From: Scytolyngbya sp. HA4215-MV1
GTDB taxonomy: Bacteria > Cyanobacteriota > Cyanobacteriia > Leptolyngbyales > Leptolyngbyaceae
Reading direction: 5' to 3'
Length of the DNA stretch: 64,000 bases
NCBI GenBank assembly: GCA_019359045.1
Contig: JAHHIA010000005.1
Location: forward strand, 248,001 to 312,000
Below are positions 40,904 through 53,676 of the stretch, piece by piece. Under the pieces are notes generated by a model. It was not told where the DNA came from. It made no database searches and saw only the letters and a list, made by a program, of their open reading frames with translations. Within the stretch, counting starts at the first letter, position 1. The number at the start of each line of letters is the position of its first letter. A program made the position numbers and the translations under genes.

Positions 40904-42418
40904 TTACTCAAACCCTTGCAAAAAGGTTTGCACTTTGCCATCCGGAGAGAGCACGACTCGGATTTTAGGGCTGCGTCCACCTGCGATCGGAGAAACAAAA
41001 GATTCTCCGATCAGCGGCATTCCCGTGCGATCAATATAGTCGCCCGATGCCAGCCCCAACGGCGAAATTCGTTGAATCGTACCATCTGGAGCCAATATCA
41101 GCGTATATTCCAACGTTTGGGTCAGCCCTTCCGGCGGTTGCCAACGGTCTTTAAAGTATTGACGAACTTCGGCAACTTGGGGAATGGTGTCAAAGGCAGT
41201 CGTGTTTCGTTCGGCAGCGGCACCTACTCCGGCGCTCTCCGCGACAGGCGCAGGCAGAGCGGCACCCGTTGCAATCTCGGACCTCAATCGGACTTTTGCT
41301 GATCCACGAGCAGCGTTGTTTTGTTGATCAGCCAGCGCAATTTGGGTCGGTGTCTTGGCATCTCTGTTGGTGGCTGAATTAGCAGCCCCCCCCCCTGGAG
41401 TAGAGGGTCTACCGGGCACGATCGGGGCAACAGGTGCAGATTGAGGCACTGTAACAGTGGATAAACTGGACGGCACGGGTAAGGTCGAACCGAGAGGCGG
41501 TGGGGGTGGCAGTTTTTGTCCCGAAGCCAACGGTGACGGCACGGGTAAGGTCGTTGTCGAAGGGCTGACAGACGGAACAACCTGTGCCATTTGCTGATCC
41601 GCACTGCTGGCACCCTGGCTACTGGTCGGACTGTTGGCTACTTGCCCTCTCTGGTAAGAACCATCCAAAATTTTGGCAAGCGAAGTCGTTAAACCAATGG
41701 TGAGCAGAGCGATCGCTGCCACTCTAGACCAGGAGGGAGGCGCTTTTAACCAACGAGGCGAATTGAGAGTGGGTAAAGCCAGGACATCGGCAGCATACTC
41801 ATCTAATGCTGAAGCCAGGTCAAACAGTTGTAAAGCACTCAAGCGAATTGCGGGGCCAGATTCGGCAGTTGCCAGAGACCCTAAAAATAAGGAGTGGTTC
41901 AACAATCCTTGCGGTTGCAGATAAATCTGATTGGAGTGAAAACGAGGATCAGCGCTAGGTGACGATTCGCGTTGGGCCTGACGATCGTTCCACTTCGCCT
42001 CAAACGGAACGACCTTGCCCCCTGCCTCACTGGTCGAAACCAGGGCTTCGTTGGATTCCACTCCTCGTAAAGCAAAGGGACTCGCCGTAGGCGACAGTTT
42101 GGGAAAGGGGGTGGCTGTCCAATCCAGACGCTGGTCAGAAGCAAGTAAGCCTGCATTCAGTTGAGCTGAGGACTGATCCAGAAAACTCTGCACGTAGAGT
42201 TCCACTGCTTCTCGGAGCGTTTCTAACTGAATGCGATCGCCCTGCAAGGAAAGCCAGGTTTCTTCTGGCGATCGGGGATCATCAAAACTCAGTTCAAACT
42301 CCAACTCCTTGAGCACAGTCTGACCTGCCCAGCGAGATAAGGGCGAACCTTGAGCCACAATCTCTAGGGTGCAAGTCGGAGGCGTATACCGTCGCAAAAC
42401 TGACTTCGAGGAAAACAT
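40904..42418 (-). CDS. DUF4335-family membrane protein, paralogue A
   Basis: A 504-aa protein of unknown function. The N-terminal DUF4335 domain (about 1-240) opens with VLRRYTPPTCTLEI and is followed by a membrane helix (VAAIALLTIGLTTSLAKIL, about 248), a long Pro/Ser-rich linker (270-400) and a C-terminal beta domain (about 410-504; FKDRWQPPEGLTQTLEY; VVLSPDGKVQTFLQGF). A cytoplasmic head and a tail across the membrane are likely. DUF3038 lies 68 bp upstream. A second DUF3038/DUF4335 pair is at 51671-53676; the C-terminal domain is single here but tandem there. No enzyme motif is present. Confidence 0.85.
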   Translation of the reverse strand: MFSSKSVLRRYTPPTCTLEIVAQGSPLSRWAGQTVLKELEFELSFDDPRSPEETWLSLQGDRIQLETLREAVELYVQSFLDQSSAQLNAGLLASDQRLDWTATPFPKLSPTASPFALRGVESNEALVSTSEAGGKVVPFEAKWNDRQAQRESSPSADPRFHSNQIYLQPQGLLNHSLFLGSLATAESGPAIRLSALQLFDLASALDEYAADVLALPTLNSPRWLKAPPSWSRVAAIALLTIGLTTSLAKILDGSYQRGQVANSPTSSQGASSADQQMAQVVPSVSPSTTTLPVPSPLASGQKLPPPPPLGSTLPVPSSLSTVTVPQSAPVAPIVPGRPSTPGGGAANSATNRDAKTPTQIALADQQNNAARGSAKVRLRSEIATGAALPAPVAESAGVGAAAERNTTAFDTIPQVAEVRQYFKDRWQPPEGLTQTLEYTLILAPDGTIQRISPLGLASGDYIDRTGMPLIGESFVSPIAGGRSPKIRVVLSPDGKVQTFLQGFE

Positions 42419-42486
42419 GAGATAGCGCTTGAATGCCTACTTGAATGCGTACTGGATGAAAAAATTACTATCAACCGCGATCGCGG

Positions 42487-43113
42487 CTAAGCCTCTTTGG
42501 CACGATTGGCAGAAGCAAGCACCTCTGCATCTCTGGCACGATCTAATAATGCCAGCCAGAGACGGCGGGCACCTCCCGGACCACTATAAAACAGGAGATC
42601 AATCAACAATTTGAGTGCCAGATGCGTTAAGCCTTCTGGATTGACCTGATCTCCGTCTTCCATCCGCTCCTGGTAAGTATTACTGAAAGAATCCAGATAA
42701 TCTCCTAATAGGGCGGCATGGTGTGGCTCCCGGTTCTGCTCAGTCAATTGCTCTAGCAAACTGACCGCGCGGCGCACTAATTCTTGATATTGTCTTGCCA
42801 GGAAACAGCTAATCAGCACAAGGGCTCTTGCCTCCTCCACATCTAGTTTCTTGCGTCCACCTTGCCCTTTGCGTAGTGGACTGGATTGACGCAATCGCCA
42901 TAACGCCACCCGATCAGCAACGACTGACTCCAGGTTGAGTTCAACTGCTGCTTGCAGCATTGCCTCAGAGCCAATTCCTGCCAGCGATTCGAGCGCTAGC
43001 AGCACTAGATCGAGCTGGGCTTTGATGTTGTCCAACTGATCGGGGTCAGGCTGGTTGACGAGAGGTAACTCAATCAACTGCGAGGATGTGGCAGGCTTAG
43101 CTGTAGATGGCAT
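42487..43113 (-). CDS. DUF3038-family protein, paralogue A
   Basis: A 208-aa helical cytoplasmic protein of the cyanobacteria-specific DUF3038 family. The core is LDLVLLALESLAGIGSEAML, then DRVALWRLRQSSPLRKGQ and EARALVLISCFLARQYQELV. It is followed on the same strand by DUF4335, the family pair always seen together as far as I recall. The second pair on the plus strand encodes a protein with the same order of motifs (ILLAIEALDLGGSEAIL; RVVLWRLRSTNPLRR). No function is known; the pair may form a complex. Confidence 0.87.
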   Translation of the reverse strand: MPSTAKPATSSQLIELPLVNQPDPDQLDNIKAQLDLVLLALESLAGIGSEAMLQAAVELNLESVVADRVALWRLRQSSPLRKGQGGRKKLDVEEARALVLISCFLARQYQELVRRAVSLLEQLTEQNREPHHAALLGDYLDSFSNTYQERMEDGDQVNPEGLTHLALKLLIDLLFYSGPGGARRLWLALLDRARDAEVLASANRAKEA

Positions 43114-46819: not shown

Positions 46820-49129
46820 ATGACTCAACCGCCAGAAAATGAACCTGCCTCGACACCACCAGTGCCGCGTCCCAGCACTGAACGGCGCTTCGTGCAACGA
46901 TCGCTTCAGGGCATTGCTCGTTGGTCGCCATTGGGGGGCAGTAGCTTTGCTTTTGCATCTTTTTTGCTGAAACAAGATTGGGCGACAGCGGGACTTTTAT
47001 TACCTGTTACTGCGGTTTCTGGCGTGTGGGCAGCTTACAGCCAAAATTTTGTGGAGCGCCTGAGCGAAATTTATGGAGAACGAGCCAGGAACGATGCAGA
47101 TAAGCTGGTCGCTTGGATGGATAGTCTGAATCAAACGCTGCAATGGCAATTCTCTGGGTTCGATCAAAAATATCTCAAACAACAAGCCAAGCTCTGTCAG
47201 GAATACACCACTGAAGGGTTCAATCCTGATAAAACTGCCATTCCCATGTTGGAACAGGTATTTGTGCCGTTGCAACTCAGTGGCTACTTTGCTGAAGATA
47301 TCGTTCGTGTTCAGGATTTGAATCACTCTCCAGAAGGACTCAGTATCTGGGATCTGATCCGTCGATCGCGCAAAGACCGCACCTTCCGACAAATGGCAAT
47401 TCAAGCCAAAGGAGGATTTGGTAAAACCACGCTGATGCGTCACATTGCCCTAATCTATGGGGAAGGCAAATATCGAAATTACCAGGCACCCAAACTAATT
47501 CCCTTTTTGTTGTACTTGCGCGATTGGCACGCGTTGTTAACTCAAAAGAACCCACCCACGCTGCCAGACCTGATTACCAAACACTATTTACCCAGTCTGT
47601 CTCACAGCCAACCCTTAACTCCCCCACCCCTATGGGTAGAAAGCCTGCTGCGCGAAGGAGATGCATTGGTCATGTTGGATGGGTTCGATGAACTGGCAGA
47701 GGGACAGCGCCAGCGAGCCAGCCACTGGATCAGTCAGCAGATGCAAGAGTTTCCCCGATCGACCTTTATCGTCACTTCTCGTCCCGCAGGCTATCAGGAC
47801 TATGTCGCCAAGCACCCCACGGCACCGTTGTTTGTGCAGAAATTTAGCCCAGACCAACAAAAGAAATTTGTGGAACGCTGGTATTTGTGTCAGGAGCGCT
47901 GTGCCCGTAGCGAAAACCAATTTGCTCAAGCAGAAATCGCAGCAACGCAAAAAGCTCAAAATTTACTGGTGCAATTGATCGACCCCAACCGCCCAGAATT
48001 GCGCGAGATGGCAGAAAATCCGCTGTTGCTCAATATGCTGGCAACCTTCCATCGCTTTGATCCAGGGGTCGAGTTGCCCAAACGGCGGGTAGAACTCTAC
48101 AAGGGGATTTGCAAACTGCAACTGGACGATCGTCCCAGAGCCAGAGGCATTGCCATGCTTTTGCCCTTAGAAAAAAGCCTGTCTATCTTGCAATCGCTGG
48201 CGTTGGCAATGGTCAATGCCAACCGTCCTACCATCCCTCGATCTCAAATTCTCAGCTTGTTTCAAAAGCATGTCATTTTGCAGCAAGAAGAGATTGATCC
48301 AACTGCATTTTTGCAACAAATGGTGCAAGTCAGCGAACTGTTGGTGGAACGAGAACCCAACGAATTTGAGTTTCCTCACCTCAGCTTTCAGGGCTATTTT
48401 GCCGCATCTCGTTTAGAGCAACAAGGCAACAAGGCTTTGTCTCTGGTGCAACAAAATTGGGACAAAACCTGGTGGCGCGAAACCATTTTGCTCTACACTG
48501 CCCAACTCTCTCCTCGACTGTTGACCCAGGTCATTAACCAAGCCTGTAACCTCGGCAAAGAAGCTGCCCAACTGGCTTACGATTGTCTGCGAGAATATCG
48601 CAACCCAGAAAAGCTCGACCCGACTCTGGCACAAGAACTTGCCGCGCTAACAGGCAATGTACAAAATCTGCGCTATCAACGATTGGAGGAGTCGCTGAAA
48701 ACTGGGCAATGGGAAGAAGCCGACGAGGAAACCTATCAGCTCATGATTACCACCGTGGGCAAAGAAGTGGGACAGTGGTTTGAGCCGGAGGACTTACTGA
48801 ATTTTCCCTGTGAGGAGCTACGAACTATTGGTGAATTGTGGGTGAAGTACAGCCGGGGACACTTTGGCTTCAGTGTACAAAAAGAGATCTATCTGCAATG
48901 CGGTGGCATTCTAGATGGCAAGTATGATCAGAAAGCGTGGAACAAGTTTTGCCACGCCGTGGGCTGGAAAGTAAAAGACAAGTATGTACCTGTAACATAT
49001 AGCACCTTAGCGCTGAGAGGACACCTCCCTGGGGTGTTAGTGGTGCTTGGGGTGGATGGTTGGGGTGGTGGTGGATGGTTGGGGTTGGGTTGGTATTTCT
49101 TCTCTCGCATCCAGGCTTGTGAAGTGTAA
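46820..49129 (+). CDS. Membrane-anchored NACHT NTPase with C-terminal GUN4 domain
   Basis: A 769-aa STAND ATPase. Two hydrophobic segments at about 40-75 (SFAFASFLL; LLLPVTAVSGVWAAY) suggest a membrane anchor. The NACHT module follows: Walker A QAKGGFGKTTLMRH near 196-206, Walker B ALVMLDGFDELAEGQ near 280-290, sensor TFIVTSRPAGY and the helical ENPLLLNMLA and FEFPHLSFQGYFAA segments. Residues 620-769 are a GUN4 domain (LEESLKTGQWEEADEET; CEELRTIGELWVKYSRGHFG; FSVQKEIYLQCGG) ending in a Gly/Trp-rich tail. GUN4 binds porphyrins and activates Mg-chelatase when free-standing; here it probably works as a sensor. The gene is monocistronic. Confidence 0.9.
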   Translation: MTQPPENEPASTPPVPRPSTERRFVQRSLQGIARWSPLGGSSFAFASFLLKQDWATAGLLLPVTAVSGVWAAYSQNFVERLSEIYGERARNDADKLVAWMDSLNQTLQWQFSGFDQKYLKQQAKLCQEYTTEGFNPDKTAIPMLEQVFVPLQLSGYFAEDIVRVQDLNHSPEGLSIWDLIRRSRKDRTFRQMAIQAKGGFGKTTLMRHIALIYGEGKYRNYQAPKLIPFLLYLRDWHALLTQKNPPTLPDLITKHYLPSLSHSQPLTPPPLWVESLLREGDALVMLDGFDELAEGQRQRASHWISQQMQEFPRSTFIVTSRPAGYQDYVAKHPTAPLFVQKFSPDQQKKFVERWYLCQERCARSENQFAQAEIAATQKAQNLLVQLIDPNRPELREMAENPLLLNMLATFHRFDPGVELPKRRVELYKGICKLQLDDRPRARGIAMLLPLEKSLSILQSLALAMVNANRPTIPRSQILSLFQKHVILQQEEIDPTAFLQQMVQVSELLVEREPNEFEFPHLSFQGYFAASRLEQQGNKALSLVQQNWDKTWWRETILLYTAQLSPRLLTQVINQACNLGKEAAQLAYDCLREYRNPEKLDPTLAQELAALTGNVQNLRYQRLEESLKTGQWEEADEETYQLMITTVGKEVGQWFEPEDLLNFPCEELRTIGELWVKYSRGHFGFSVQKEIYLQCGGILDGKYDQKAWNKFCHAVGWKVKDKYVPVTYSTLALRGHLPGVLVVLGVDGWGGGGWLGLGWYFFSRIQACEV

Positions 49130-49364
49130 CTTATAGGGCTGCTGGGTTTTTCTAAAGTTTTTTAACGGTGCGGTTTGGCTAGGAAGAATCAGGGTTCTGG
49201 CGTTTCGTTACCTGGCACCGCTGCTTGTCCATCTGCGTCAGCGCCACCTCTGGGTTGTAGCAACTTGCTGCCACAAACTTTTCTGCCACTGCTCGGATTT
49301 CTTCAAGCGGCGTATTCCACTCTTCCCATAAGCTTTGTTGCCCTGGGCTGGTCTTTGCAGATTT

Positions 49365-49659
49365 AGAGGATGTTTGAAAAGTTATCGGCTGTGATGTTGA
49401 GCACTCACAGATCCCCCAACCCCCCTTAAAAAACTCCGGTGTACACACAAGTCTTCTGATTGAGCCTAGGTCGGGTTGTGATCCTCCCTAGCCCTCCTTA
49501 AAAAGGAGGGAACCGATTGGAAGTCCCCCTTTTTAAGCTCCGGTGTACACATAAATCTCAGGTCCCCCTTTGGTTTGGCGAAGCCTCTCTGCGCGAGATA
49601 GAGGGATTTAGCGGGATCGGGTCTGTTGCGACTTGCGACAGGACTCTCAAACATCCTCT
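49365..49659. mobile_element. Miniature element with perfect 13-bp terminal inverted repeats
   Basis: AGAGGATGTTTGA (49365-49377) and TCAAACATCCTCT (49647-49659) are perfect inverted termini around 295 bp of non-coding DNA. Inside are palindromes (TCCTCCC...GGAGGGA around 49484-49510) and two CTCCGGTGTACACA words about 110 bp apart. No transposase is encoded. Related but degenerate sequence lies at 39768-39996 and a left-end fragment at 33670, which supports a non-autonomous mobile family. Confidence 0.7.
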
Positions 49660-51337: not shown

Positions 51338-51670
51338 AGACTTATTTGAGTCAGTCTTGTATGAACAAATACCGAATTGTTCTCGTCTAGCTAGATGAAG
51401 ACGACTCAGAAATCGTACACTAGAAGGCTGCACTGTTTAGCTTGCTGGTGAACAATTGATCTGAAGATTGCTGACCCCGTTATTCCATGATTTCTTTGAG
51501 ATTTTTCCATCGGATGATCCCGATTTCGGTAGAATGCTGCTGGATGTGAGCTACGAGGGTAGAAATTGGATTAATATGCCCATCCTGAGACTAGGGATTG
51601 CTATCTTGAGCATCTCGTCTGCAAGAGTCTTTTTGAATAGTTTGTTGAAGTGAACGTTACCGTGAGTGTA
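51338..51670. other. Divergent promoter region of apt and the DUF3038 gene
   Basis: About 330 bp with no gene. It should hold the apt promoter (minus) and the DUF3038 promoter (plus). No distinct operator or strong hairpin was seen. Confidence 0.4.
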
Positions 51671-52276
51671 ATGCAAGTAAACAGTCCACCTGCCCAATCG
51701 ACCCCTCTGATTTTAGACAGCCTGATGAATCCGGCTATCCCAGACGATGCCTGTCCCCGACGAACGATGCAACAAATTGACCTGATACTCCTCGCGATCG
51801 AAGCGCTTGATTTAGGAGGCTCAGAAGCAATTTTGGCAGTTGCAGACGAATTGGAACTCCAGGGGATTATTAAAAACCGGGTAGTATTGTGGCGATTGCG
51901 GAGCACCAATCCCCTGCGACGGTTTAACCAGCGCCGTCCTATGACTCTGACCGAAGCCAAAGCCCTCGTCGTCATTGGGTGCAATCTGGCAAGACGCTTG
52001 ACTGTTCTCATTCGACAATTACTGCTGGCATATCAGCAACTCAGTGAGAAGCAACTTTCTTTTGAACATCACTTTCGTTTGTATGATTACCTGGAGCGGT
52101 TTCGATCGCACTTTCGCGCCAGGATGAATCCCAAACGAACCGCAGTCACTGCCTACAGTTCAGACGAAAAGCTGAACGAATTGGCAATTCAGCTATTGGG
52201 ACAGTTGCTCTTTTGCACGGGCACGGCTGGAATGCAACGATTTTGGGTTAGCTTGTTCGATGGAGAAGTGGCATGA
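51671..52276 (+). CDS. DUF3038-family protein, paralogue B
   Basis: A protein of about 201 aa, paralogous to the gene at 42487-43113. It shares the core LILLAIEALDLGGSEAIL, NRVVLWRLRSTNPLRR and EAKALVVIGCNLARRL, but has a shorter C-terminus. The ATG at 51671 is used; a GTG seven codons upstream is open. The stop overlaps the start of the DUF4335 gene by 4 nt (ATGA), so the pair is translationally coupled. Function unknown; the duplicate suggests the two pairs have diverged in specificity. Confidence 0.85.
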   Translation: MQVNSPPAQSTPLILDSLMNPAIPDDACPRRTMQQIDLILLAIEALDLGGSEAILAVADELELQGIIKNRVVLWRLRSTNPLRRFNQRRPMTLTEAKALVVIGCNLARRLTVLIRQLLLAYQQLSEKQLSFEHHFRLYDYLERFRSHFRARMNPKRTAVTAYSSDEKLNELAIQLLGQLLFCTGTAGMQRFWVSLFDGEVA

Positions 52277-53676
52277 CGATTCAGCGCCAGTACAATCTAC
52301 CCAACTGCACTTTGATTCTAGAAGGCTTGAGCGACACGGTGACTGCCTCTAGTGAAGTTAGACCGCTGATGTCAATCTTGGTCAATGCTGAGTGCCATTT
52401 TGTGGGTCATACGAACCCCCTGGTGGGCGGGCGAGACTTCTTTGAAAGTCTGATCAATGCCGTTAGCCACTACGCGCAAGAATTTCTCAGTGGCATTCAC
52501 CCGGTTGCTAAAAAGAGTGGCATGGGTCTGGTAGAAGTGCACCGACTCGAGCAACAAATACATCGTTTAAGCGTGCATGATCCCGATGCCAAGCATTCCG
52601 AAGCGACCCCGCCTCAAGTTCAGCTTGATTTAACCACGGTGCAATTGTTTGATTTGATTGAGGCGATCGATCAGTTCTTTGCCGATTCGCAAACGCTGCC
52701 CGATCTGTCCCTCCAGTTAACTCCCTTGCCTCGGCGCGATGTCCGATCGAGCCAACCCATGGTGAAGCGGGCAGTTCCCGTTGCGGTGGGAGCTTCGACT
52801 TTAGCAGCAGCGATCGCCCTATTCTCGCTCTTGCCCTTCCCCAAGGTACGGCAACCAGATGCCCTGACCCCCCAAGCTGCCAAGCAGGCAACTTCCAGTC
52901 CCAGCCCCACAACCAATCCCAAAGCTGGAGCCTCCCCATCCCCAACGGCCTCAGCTTCGGCATCACCGACGGGAGCGGCTGCCATTAGCGAAACAGCTTT
53001 GACTTCAGCTCCCGCCCTGACCGATCCGGTCAAAATTAAGGATCTTGAGGCAGGGCTGAAAACTAAGATCGATCAAAACTGGAAAACCCAACCCACATTT
53101 AAAGAGGAACTCGTCTATCGAGTTGGGGTCAGTGCCAATGGCGATATTTTGGGCTATAAGTACGTCAACTCGGCAGCCCTCGATTTTGTCAATGAAACCC
53201 CCCTGCCCGATCTGTACTATAAGCCTGTACCTGGAAGCACCAAAAATTCAGAACCCCTCGCTCAATACAGAGTGGTCTTTACACCGTCGGGACAATTGCA
53301 AGTTAGCCCCTGGCAAGAGACCGCTGCTTCTCCGCTTGCTTCTCCCCTAGCAGTTACCGAAATTACAGACCCTGAACAGATCAAAGCCCTCCAACCAAAA
53401 CTGTACGAGCGAATTGATCAAAGCTGGAAGACCAAACCGACGTTTGACAAAGACTTAACCTTTAAGGTTCGGTTGAAAGCTGATGGGACGATCGTGGACT
53501 ATAAACCCATGAACCAGCCCGCTAATGATTATGTCAAAGAGGTCCCCCTGTCCGATTTGGGTACGCTCACGTCCGACGATACTTCCCCATCAGCAGAACC
53601 CCTGGCATTGTTCAAGGTCGTCTTTAAGCCCGATGGCAAGCTGGAGGTCAGTCCCTGGCGTGGCTATCAGCCCTAA
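52273..53676 (+). CDS. DUF4335-family membrane protein, paralogue B, with tandem C-terminal domains
   Basis: A 467-aa protein. The DUF4335 N-domain starts QRQYNLPNCTLILEGLSD, as in paralogue A (RRYTPPTCTLEI). A membrane helix (VAVGASTLAAAIALFSLLPF, about 175-195), a Ser/Pro/Ala linker (200-250) and two copies of a roughly 100-residue beta domain follow: copy 1 about 255-352 (KTKIDQNWKTQPTFKEEL to QLQVSPW) and copy 2 about 365-465 (YERIDQSWKTKPTFDKDL to KLEVSPW). The repeat resembles the strand order of TonB C-terminal domains, but this is a visual impression. It overlaps DUF3038 and faces a hypothetical gene. Confidence 0.85.
   Translation: MTIQRQYNLPNCTLILEGLSDTVTASSEVRPLMSILVNAECHFVGHTNPLVGGRDFFESLINAVSHYAQEFLSGIHPVAKKSGMGLVEVHRLEQQIHRLSVHDPDAKHSEATPPQVQLDLTTVQLFDLIEAIDQFFADSQTLPDLSLQLTPLPRRDVRSSQPMVKRAVPVAVGASTLAAAIALFSLLPFPKVRQPDALTPQAAKQATSSPSPTTNPKAGASPSPTASASASPTGAAAISETALTSAPALTDPVKIKDLEAGLKTKIDQNWKTQPTFKEELVYRVGVSANGDILGYKYVNSAALDFVNETPLPDLYYKPVPGSTKNSEPLAQYRVVFTPSGQLQVSPWQETAASPLASPLAVTEITDPEQIKALQPKLYERIDQSWKTKPTFDKDLTFKVRLKADGTIVDYKPMNQPANDYVKEVPLSDLGTLTSDDTSPSAEPLALFKVVFKPDGKLEVSPWRGYQP

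What the first reader, a model, noticed from the sequence alone, without database searches (positions are those of the whole stretch)
46820..49129. NACHT-GUN4: a STAND NTPase with a tetrapyrrole-sensing domain
Walker A (GGFGKTT) and B (LDGFDEL) motifs belong to a complete NACHT module anchored by two N-terminal hydrophobic segments; the last 150 residues are a GUN4 domain. Bacterial NACHT proteins often act in phage defence or programmed cell death, with the C-terminus as sensor. Here the sensor would read porphyrin or bilin levels, or a viral effect on pigment metabolism (cyanophages carry pigment genes). No effector domain is visible other than the membrane segments, suggesting a membrane-perturbing output.
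Basis: partly seen in the sequence, partly recalled or inferred. Interest (0 to 1): 0.75.

Follow-up and report, generated by a model that had tools for sequence, protein, structure and literature searches.

The report
Cyanobacterial receptors with randomised DNA ends
The gene is a real NACHT-GUN4 protein of a kind common in cyanobacteria, but its GUN4 part has lost residues that bind chlorophyll precursors and instead ends in a stretch of apparently random DNA between two fixed sites, which looks like a new way for bacteria to diversify immune-type receptors.

Summary
The ORF, the NACHT module and the GUN4 domain are real. NACHT-GUN4 is one of several cyanobacterial fusions (NACHT, kinase, caspase, TIR) with GUN4 at the C-terminus. 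The tetrapyrrole-sensor reading is not supported: porphyrin-binding residues F196 and R214, kept in 30 of 30 canonical GUN4, are kept in 2 and 0 of 87 fusion GUN4 domains. In their place, directly after the Pro codon of the GxLP motif, comes a G/T-rich segment (22-154 nt, median 57). It has little or no codon-position structure, uses all three frames, has no second copy in this genome and is usually replaced wholesale between similar genes. It ends sharply at a conserved ~113-bp DNA element (window 49098-49210) with stop codons in the frames used. The element is found in 62 of 291 genomes of the phylum and lies beside GUN4 in 6 of 6 copies here. A RAYT-like HUH transposase gene, or its remnant, follows it in part of the loci. 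Best reading: immune/cell-death receptors whose GUN4 scaffold is diversified by site-bounded, untemplated DNA insertion, working like junctional (N-region) diversity. The insertion pattern is well supported; enzyme, ligand and defence role are inferred.

The parts
46820..49129 (+). NACHT-GUN4 ORF, 769 aa
46946..47047 (+). two modestly hydrophobic N-terminal segments (residues 43-76), possible membrane anchor
   Evidence: Kyte-Doolittle 1.10 and 1.40
47387..47881 (+). NACHT NTPase module (residues 190-354; Walker A at 198, Walker B at 286)
48662..49030 (+). GUN4 core (residues 615-737), ending at the GHLP motif; F196 and R214 equivalents absent
49031..49097 (+). variable segment, 67 nt, G/T-rich, no second copy found in this genome; the junction itself is probably one base earlier, after CC of the Pro codon
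49098..49210 (+). conserved DNA element ('tail'), TCTTCTCTCGC..., begins inside the ORF and runs past its stop codon; read in all three frames in different genes
49248..49370 (-). C-terminal remnant of a convergent RAYT-like Y1 transposase gene (matches residues 204-244 of a 251-aa relative)

Best explanation
The protein is a STAND-type immune or cell-death receptor. Its GUN4 domain is no longer a porphyrin sensor but a fold used as a scaffold, and its C-terminal strand is made of random residues. Shown by sequence: at a fixed site right after the Pro codon of GxLP, where canonical GUN4 continues into its porphyrin-binding Asn211/Arg214 stretch, these genes carry a segment of random-looking G/T-rich DNA (22-154 nt). 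It ends at a fixed site, the start of a conserved ~113-bp DNA element with stop codons in the frames used, so segments of any length mod 3 still give a short, terminated C-terminus. Inferred: the segment is made by untemplated DNA synthesis at a break in the element. The neighbouring RAYT-like HUH nuclease would plausibly nick the bottom strand at the GAGAGAAGAGA end and leave a 3'-OH that an unidentified polymerase extends with C/A-rich DNA before rejoining. Inferred: the random C-terminus, on the part of GUN4 that once bound tetrapyrrole, recognises a changing ligand such as a phage product and triggers the N-terminal NACHT, kinase, caspase or TIR part.
For: Composition and coding: 46 first-set segments are A .13 C .10 G .44 T .33 with no significant codon-position effect (p 0.07), while the same number of bases just upstream has p 3e-8; amino-acid use is close to the iid expectation; stops are 1 of 825 codons in the used frame and 40 of 808 and 40 of 797 in the others. 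A second set of 38 from other families: p 0.22, stops 0 of 806, 25 of 791, 53 of 781. Length remainders mod 3 (0/1/2) are 35/22/30 of 87. Borders: on the right, base use is background up to three bases before the element; on the left, in 12 pairs, the CC is identical in 12 of 12 and the next base differs in 9 of 12. Replacement: of 42 gene pairs with at least 80% identity upstream, 41 have segments with only 0.43-0.67 identity over the overlap. In a tandem pair in one genome, upstream identity is 94.5%, the first 60 bases of the element are identical, and the segments are no more alike than random pairs (0.40 against 0.416 +- 0.086 for 300 random pairs). Not templated: no second copy of the window segment in its genome; 46 first-set segments share only 10-21-nt G/T-rich matches; no phage match for the two stretches tried; no fold (86 segments). 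Pocket loss. The element lies beside GUN4 in 6 of 6 copies here and occurs in 62 of 291 genomes. RAYT-like gene: 22 of 29 genomes with it carry the element (62 of 291 overall), Fisher p 3e-11; it is the largest neighbour cluster besides the GUN4 proteins, in 15 of 85 loci, 14 of them among the 46 with the element. Partners.
Against: One pair (L202/L210) keeps an identical 62-nt segment at 92.5% flank identity, so a segment can be stable. All 87 segments together show a codon-position effect (p 0.005). Neighbouring equal bases are somewhat more frequent than iid (0.378 against 0.331), Cys is rarer and Trp and Phe commoner than expected, so the segments are not perfectly random. On the global measure computed for 7 of the 41 differing pairs, two (0.586, 0.608) sit at the top of the random range. 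Of the 42 pairs many share genes, and ten involve L212, whose left border looks misplaced. 40 of 62 element genomes have no RAYT-like gene at E <= 1e-20, and 4 of 20 searched at E <= 1e-3 have none, so it may not be the enzyme. The genomes are related, so the Fisher p overstates the evidence. No polymerase is identified. No variation within one culture, no ligand and no phage effect has been observed. GUN4 is under purifying selection in the three element pairs (dN/dS 0.10-0.29). Left borders were located by the GxLP motif, which itself forces the Pro codon.
Confidence: 0.6

Rival explanations
1. One reading: the GUN4 domain senses porphyrin or bilin levels and gates NACHT signalling, as a readout of photosynthesis status or of viral interference with pigments.
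For: GUN4 fold confirmed. Kaur et al. 2020 propose tetrapyrrole sensing for GUN4 in cyanobacterial conflict systems (PMC7159879, passages). Position 192 (Trp in Synechocystis, Tyr in the 30 canonical genes here) is still Tyr in 68 of 87 fusion domains, so part of the pocket remains.
Against: F196 kept in 2 of 87 and R214 in 0 of 87 fusion domains, against 30 of 30 canonical. The N211/R214 stretch is replaced by the variable segment.
Confidence: 0.12
2. Diversity-generating retroelement: the segment is a DGR variable region and the tail its initiation-of-mutagenic-homing site.
For: Position at the 3' end of the gene, and partner domains (kinase, caspase, TIR) like those of the C-type lectin DGR targets of cyanobacteria (PMC7517822, passages and section 6).
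Against: The only RVT_1 hits in this genome are a group II intron-like gene (HNH-like end by eye) and a degraded one. No copy of the GUN4 end or element was found near the first. Segments differ in length and the 46 compared share no template, whereas DGRs change adenines of one template.
Confidence: 0.07
3. Ordinary fast divergence: a dispensable C-terminal extension that drifts by slippage of G/T-rich tracts next to a relic transposon end; the tail is only an old insertion-sequence end.
For: Runs of G up to 12; equal neighbouring bases slightly in excess; transposase remnants next door; partial copies of the tail start inside some segments.
Against: Replacement of the segment in a pair that is 98% identical over the 650 bases further upstream (L160/L172); sharp borders; near-random statistics in two sets; the two tail-less fusion GUN4 pairs close enough to test keep their C-termini (0.874 and 0.691 at upstream 0.911 and 0.827); the tail itself stays conserved across families.
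Confidence: 0.15
4. Segments are captured pieces of foreign or host DNA, spacer-like, or exchanged between paralogues by gene conversion.
For: Synonymous divergence is 1.6-3.5 times higher in the GUN4 end than upstream in the three element pairs, which fits exchange of the 3' end between paralogues; the tail-less controls for this are few and not clean.
Against: No match of the window segment in this genome, no donors among the other fetched loci or segments for the first set, no phage match for the two stretches tried; composition too uniform and biased.
Confidence: 0.06

Closest known systems
GUN4-containing conflict-system proteins of cyanobacteria (Kaur et al. 2020, 2021)
   Same: GUN4 in cyanobacterial conflict systems and in one polypeptide with kinases, caspases, trypsin or TIR (PMC7159879, PMC8195603, passages).
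   Different: The passages seen call GUN4 tetrapyrrole-binding and attribute hypervariability to FGS domains and DGRs; the random segment and the three-frame tail are not in them.
Diversity-generating retroelements with C-type lectin targets in cyanobacteria
   Same: Hypervariable C-terminus of signalling proteins with similar N-terminal partners (PMC7517822, passages and section 6).
   Different: DGRs copy one template and change adenines; here length, frame and sequence are free, no template was found, and this genome has no DGR-type reverse transcriptase hit.
V(D)J junctional (N-region) diversity of vertebrates (recalled)
   Same: Untemplated-looking random nucleotides between two fixed coding ends, frame not preserved; a product with an immediate stop is seen (L224).
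   Different: No RAG, no TdT identified; one site, no V/D/J choice; no somatic cells; the product can be inherited.
RAYT / TnpA-REP single-strand transposases
   Same: The flanking gene has Y1_Tnp, the NHVH motif and YIH[GA]NP, nearest by motif (my reading) to subclass 2.1 of PMC6006769 (passages).
   Different: Below the NCBIfam cut-off for REP-associated tyrosine transposases (54 against 80 bits); no REP-like hairpin in the element; often beside accessory GUN4 genes.

Membership tests
NACHT / STAND NTPase | Pfam NACHT above cut-off, Walker A and Walker B | tested here: met
NACHT / STAND NTPase | nucleotide-dependent oligomerisation | not testable with these tools
   needs experiment; AF2 model of the protein useless (pLDDT 33)
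GUN4 fold | Pfam GUN4 above cut-off | tested here: met
   E 4.2e-32; solved GUN4 chains match by sequence
tetrapyrrole-binding GUN4 (Mg-chelatase cofactor) | Phe196 and Arg214 (Synechocystis numbering) | tested here: not met
   window has Val and a gap; 2 of 87 and 0 of 87 fusion domains, 30 of 30 canonical
Diversity-generating retroelement | DGR reverse transcriptase in the genome | tested here: not met
   (three RVT_1 matches: a group II intron-like gene and two pieces of a degraded one)
Diversity-generating retroelement | template repeat and adenine-only changes | tested here: not met
   no template found in what was searched
RAYT / TnpA-REP | Y1_Tnp core with HUH motif in the flanking gene | tested here: met
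   (relative, 251 aa; E 1.5e-16); the window keeps only its C-terminal remnant
RAYT / TnpA-REP | NCBIfam REP-associated tyrosine transposase cut-off | tested here: not met
   54.1 bits against 80; so called RAYT-like here
RAYT / TnpA-REP | REP-like hairpin element | tested here: not met
   no consensus pairs in 32 copies
anti-phage defence system | match to a known system or defence-island neighbours | tested here: not met
   18 bits against a cut-off of 1000; PD-T4-6 model spans kinase plus GUN4
anti-phage defence system | protection in a phage challenge | not testable with these tools
   needs experiment
V(D)J-like junctional diversity (works like) | untemplated-looking random insert between two fixed ends, frame not preserved | tested here: met
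V(D)J-like junctional diversity (works like) | dedicated nuclease and terminal transferase | tested here: inconclusive
   RAYT-like gene associated but absent at E <= 1e-20 from 40 of 62 element genomes; no polymerase searched for or found

The most novel reading that the evidence does not exclude
Cyanobacteria run a programmed, untemplated junctional diversification system. A site-specific cut at a dedicated three-frame-stop DNA element, made by an HUH (RAYT-like) nuclease, followed by terminal-transferase-like synthesis, builds CDR3-like random C-termini on a GUN4 scaffold fused to NACHT, kinase, caspase and TIR effectors: a bacterial receptor repertoire made by N-region-style addition.
Probability: 0.45. 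Interest if true: 0.97.

Novelty: categorically new. Interest (0 to 1): 0.86.

Why it matters
Known bacterial ways to diversify a protein region copy a template (DGRs), shuffle silent cassettes, invert DNA or slip repeats (recalled). A site-bounded, untemplated insertion in immune- or death-type receptors would be a different principle, the one used for antibody CDR3. It would make testable what GUN4 fusions in cyanobacteria are for, suggest a function for a domesticated HUH transposase, and correct the assumption that every GUN4 domain senses tetrapyrroles. It also warns that one PADLOC PD-T4-6 model is hit by GUN4 fusions that have no kinase.

Tried and rejected
AlphaFold2 with the only admissible two-sequence alignment gave pLDDT 33 and was discarded, so no fold search was run. 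Rfam found nothing in the window. The tail has no conserved RNA structure. The DGR idea was tested and dropped. Tetrapyrrole sensing was tested by residues and set aside. The PADLOC PD-T4-6 hit was traced to the GUN4 part of a kinase-GUN4 model. Three Fremyella/Tolypothrix plasmid records gave identical GUN4 loci without an element hit and so say nothing about turnover; the Stanieria pair had no element hit either. Segments are not folded DNA (mean z 0.06 in 86). Positive selection in GUN4 was not found (dN/dS 0.10-0.29 over the domain in three element pairs).

Rows dropped before counts: one search left out L053-L056 as duplicates or partial loci, and L143 was dropped for an odd length; one search compared only the 46 first-set segments; one search skipped element hits that start after model position 12, 19 element hits had no GUN4 ORF, and 3 of the 90 genes had no locatable left border (L218, L225, L239); the 38 new segments include the identical pair L202/L210; A3 holds 85 of the 90 element genes because of the size limit. 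The 42 pairs passed a shared-word prefilter and share genes; the 12 pairs were picked from them. Borders rest on the GxLP motif. The 10 genomes and the 20 were chosen because they held RAYT or element hits. The adjacency count uses only the element rows printed. The phage search used a 127-nt stretch that covers all but two bases of the L230 segment. Four of the 62 element genomes (G070, G091, G101, G235) have small genomes and weak hits (E 1.6e-4 to 4.9e-4) and may be chance.

Not in print, as far as searched: the listings (open-licence PubMed Central papers only), and the passages read of the papers named here, show no description of the variable segment or the element; bioRxiv and most subscription papers are not covered, and most listed papers were not opened.

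Full report
Observation. The ORF 46820-49129 (+) encodes 769 aa. Pfam finds NACHT at 190-354 and GUN4 at 615-740, both above cut-off. Walker A (residue 198) and Walker B (286) are intact. The N-terminal hydrophobic segments are modest. The genome has eight GUN4 matches: one canonical GUN4, this protein, a second NACHT-GUN4 on contig C15, a third on C17 with one internal TAA, caspase-GUN4 genes on C31 and C17, one on C10, and a remnant on C18. The nearest named relative is in Elainella saxicola E1 (64-66% identity). The architecture is common: among 39 genomes of the same family or class, ten besides this one hold a single match that runs from the NACHT part into GUN4.

What the C-terminus is. 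Many fusion GUN4 proteins end in one of three kinds of peptide (LFSRAxTCEL, SSLASRLVDCSTSQP, LLSHRDL). At the DNA level these are the three reading frames of one conserved sequence, TCTTCTCTCGC..GAGACTTGTgAACTGTAGCA.., which continues past the stop codon. It has no consensus secondary structure. In this genome a model of it (R1) finds six copies, all directly after a GUN4 gene or remnant (with positions). The two GUN4 genes without a match are the canonical one and the one on C10. In a phylum sample 62 of 291 genomes have it.

The variable segment. Between the GxLP motif of GUN4 and the element lies a segment that as a rule cannot be aligned between genes. In 46 genes it is 44% G, 33% T, 13% A, 10% C; base use does not differ significantly between codon positions (p 0.07), while the same number of bases just upstream differ strongly (p 3e-8). 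The encoded amino acids are close to the expectation for random DNA of that composition (Cys lower, Trp and Phe higher), equal neighbours are slightly in excess, and stop codons are missing only from the frame in use. A second set of 38 segments from other families gives the same picture (p 0.22). The 87 together show a position effect (p 0.005), which selection on the products could cause. Lengths fall in all three frames (35/22/30). Fusion GUN4 genes without the element have C-termini of ordinary composition and clear codon-position structure (30 genes), and the two such pairs close enough to test keep them.

Borders and turnover. Base use is at background up to three bases before the element and conserved from two bases before it. 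In 12 gene pairs the left flank is conserved up to the CC of the Pro codon, and the next base differs in 9 of 12. Of 42 pairs with at least 80% identity upstream, 41 have segments that are 0.43-0.67 identical over the overlap. The clearest are two tandem genes in one genome (94.5% identity in the upstream 450 bases, 100% in the first 60 bases of the element) and an orthologue pair with 98% identity over the 650 bases further upstream (L160/L172). On a global measure these two are at the random level (0.40 and 0.46 against 0.416 +- 0.086), while two more distant pairs (0.586, 0.608) lie at the top of the random range. One pair has an identical segment, so a product can be kept. There are products that look failed: a junction that opens with a stop codon (L224) and one that deletes part of GUN4 (L218).

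Not a copy. The window segment has no second copy found in its genome. The 46 first-set segments share only short G/T-rich matches, and the two stretches tried have no phage match. RVT_1 matches in this genome are limited to a group II intron-like gene and pieces of a degraded gene. So this is not a DGR by the tests made, although the partner domains resemble those of cyanobacterial DGR targets (PMC7517822, passages and section 6).

The pocket. Porphyrin binding of GUN4 depends on Phe196 and Arg214 of Synechocystis (PMC8967248, abstract and passages). R214 comes six residues after the Pro of GxLP (numbering carried over from the chain alignment), in the stretch that the variable segment replaces. 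Canonical genes keep F196, N211 and R214 in 30 of 30; the fusion domains keep F196 in 2 of 87 and R214 in 0 of 87. The alignment is not meaningful inside the random segment, so the loss of R214 is best read as loss of the whole stretch. Tyr at position 192 is kept in 68 of 87.

Neighbours. In part of the loci the gene that follows the element, convergent with the GUN4 gene, is an IS200-like Y1 transposase that resembles RAYTs, though it scores below the NCBIfam cut-off for them. In the window only a C-terminal remnant is left (49248-49370). Over 85 loci it was the largest neighbour cluster besides the GUN4 proteins, in 15 loci, 14 of them with the element (46 of the 85 have it). In 291 genomes this transposase at E <= 1e-20 is found in 29, of which 22 carry the element; without six small-genome relatives it is 22 of 23. 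But 40 of 62 element genomes lack it at that cut-off, and of 22 full-length copies 12 lie within 500 bases of a listed element. It is a candidate for the nuclease, not a proven one. A named example is the plasmid NZ_CP060823.1 of Cylindrospermopsis curvispora: two of its GUN4 genes share the flank and differ in the segment, and an intact transposase gene of this kind stands beside one.

Partners and role. 85 of the 90 element-bearing proteins were scanned: all have GUN4, 25 NACHT, 22 kinase, 18 caspase, 7 TIR_2, 2 SEFIR. These are conflict or cell-death parts. The window gene has housekeeping neighbours and no defence island. A table in a cyanophage-resistance study lists a GUN4 and kinase gene among the mutated genes of one resistant substrain (PMC10811720, one passage), together with a transporter and a glycosyltransferase, so it is only a hint.

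Reading. What is shown is a site-bounded, untemplated-looking, frame-free insertion at the C-terminus of a GUN4 scaffold, spread over cyanobacterial families and several effector types. What is inferred is that it is an active diversification system, that the HUH transposase makes the break, and that the product recognises a ligand. Each has a direct test listed in the next steps.

Noticed in passing
L110:9129-9653 and seven other element loci: A cluster whose example is a short RAYT-like start joined to a DUF559-like reading frame occurs in 8 loci, all with the element and none without it; the DUF559 name is recalled.
   Followed up: no
L223, L225, L227, L228 (genomes of one genus, g59): Element-like copies without a GUN4 ORF follow a near-identical upstream sequence; in L223, L225 and L227 two element copies lie about 1.2 kb apart, as if the element had become part of a dispersed repeat there.
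   Followed up: partly
L202 (- strand) and L210:2438-2499 (+): Two species share an identical 62-nt variable segment although the upstream flanks differ by 7.5%: the segment is better conserved than its surroundings.
   Followed up: partly
L150/L075, L184/L073, L160/L172: Synonymous divergence is 1.6-3.5 times higher in the GUN4 end than in the rest of the gene, which suggests exchange or extra mutation reaching into GUN4.
   Followed up: partly
L237:2488-2600: Two copies of the element start stand 51 nt apart behind one GUN4 gene, as if the junction had been duplicated.
   Followed up: no
window 40904-43113 (-) and 51650-53676 (+): The pair of genes DUF3038 and DUF4335 seems to be present twice in the window; the second pair was judged by eye from the translations.
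   Followed up: no
PADLOC model PDLC04062 (PD-T4-6): This model spans a kinase plus GUN4, so caspase-GUN4 and NACHT-GUN4 proteins hit it with E down to 2e-47; automatic defence annotation of cyanobacteria may be inflated.
   Followed up: yes
L248:18597-33892 (Cylindrospermopsis curvispora plasmid NZ_CP060823.1): A plasmid carries at least four GUN4-domain genes, psbA and a RAYT-like gene within 16 kb.
   Followed up: partly
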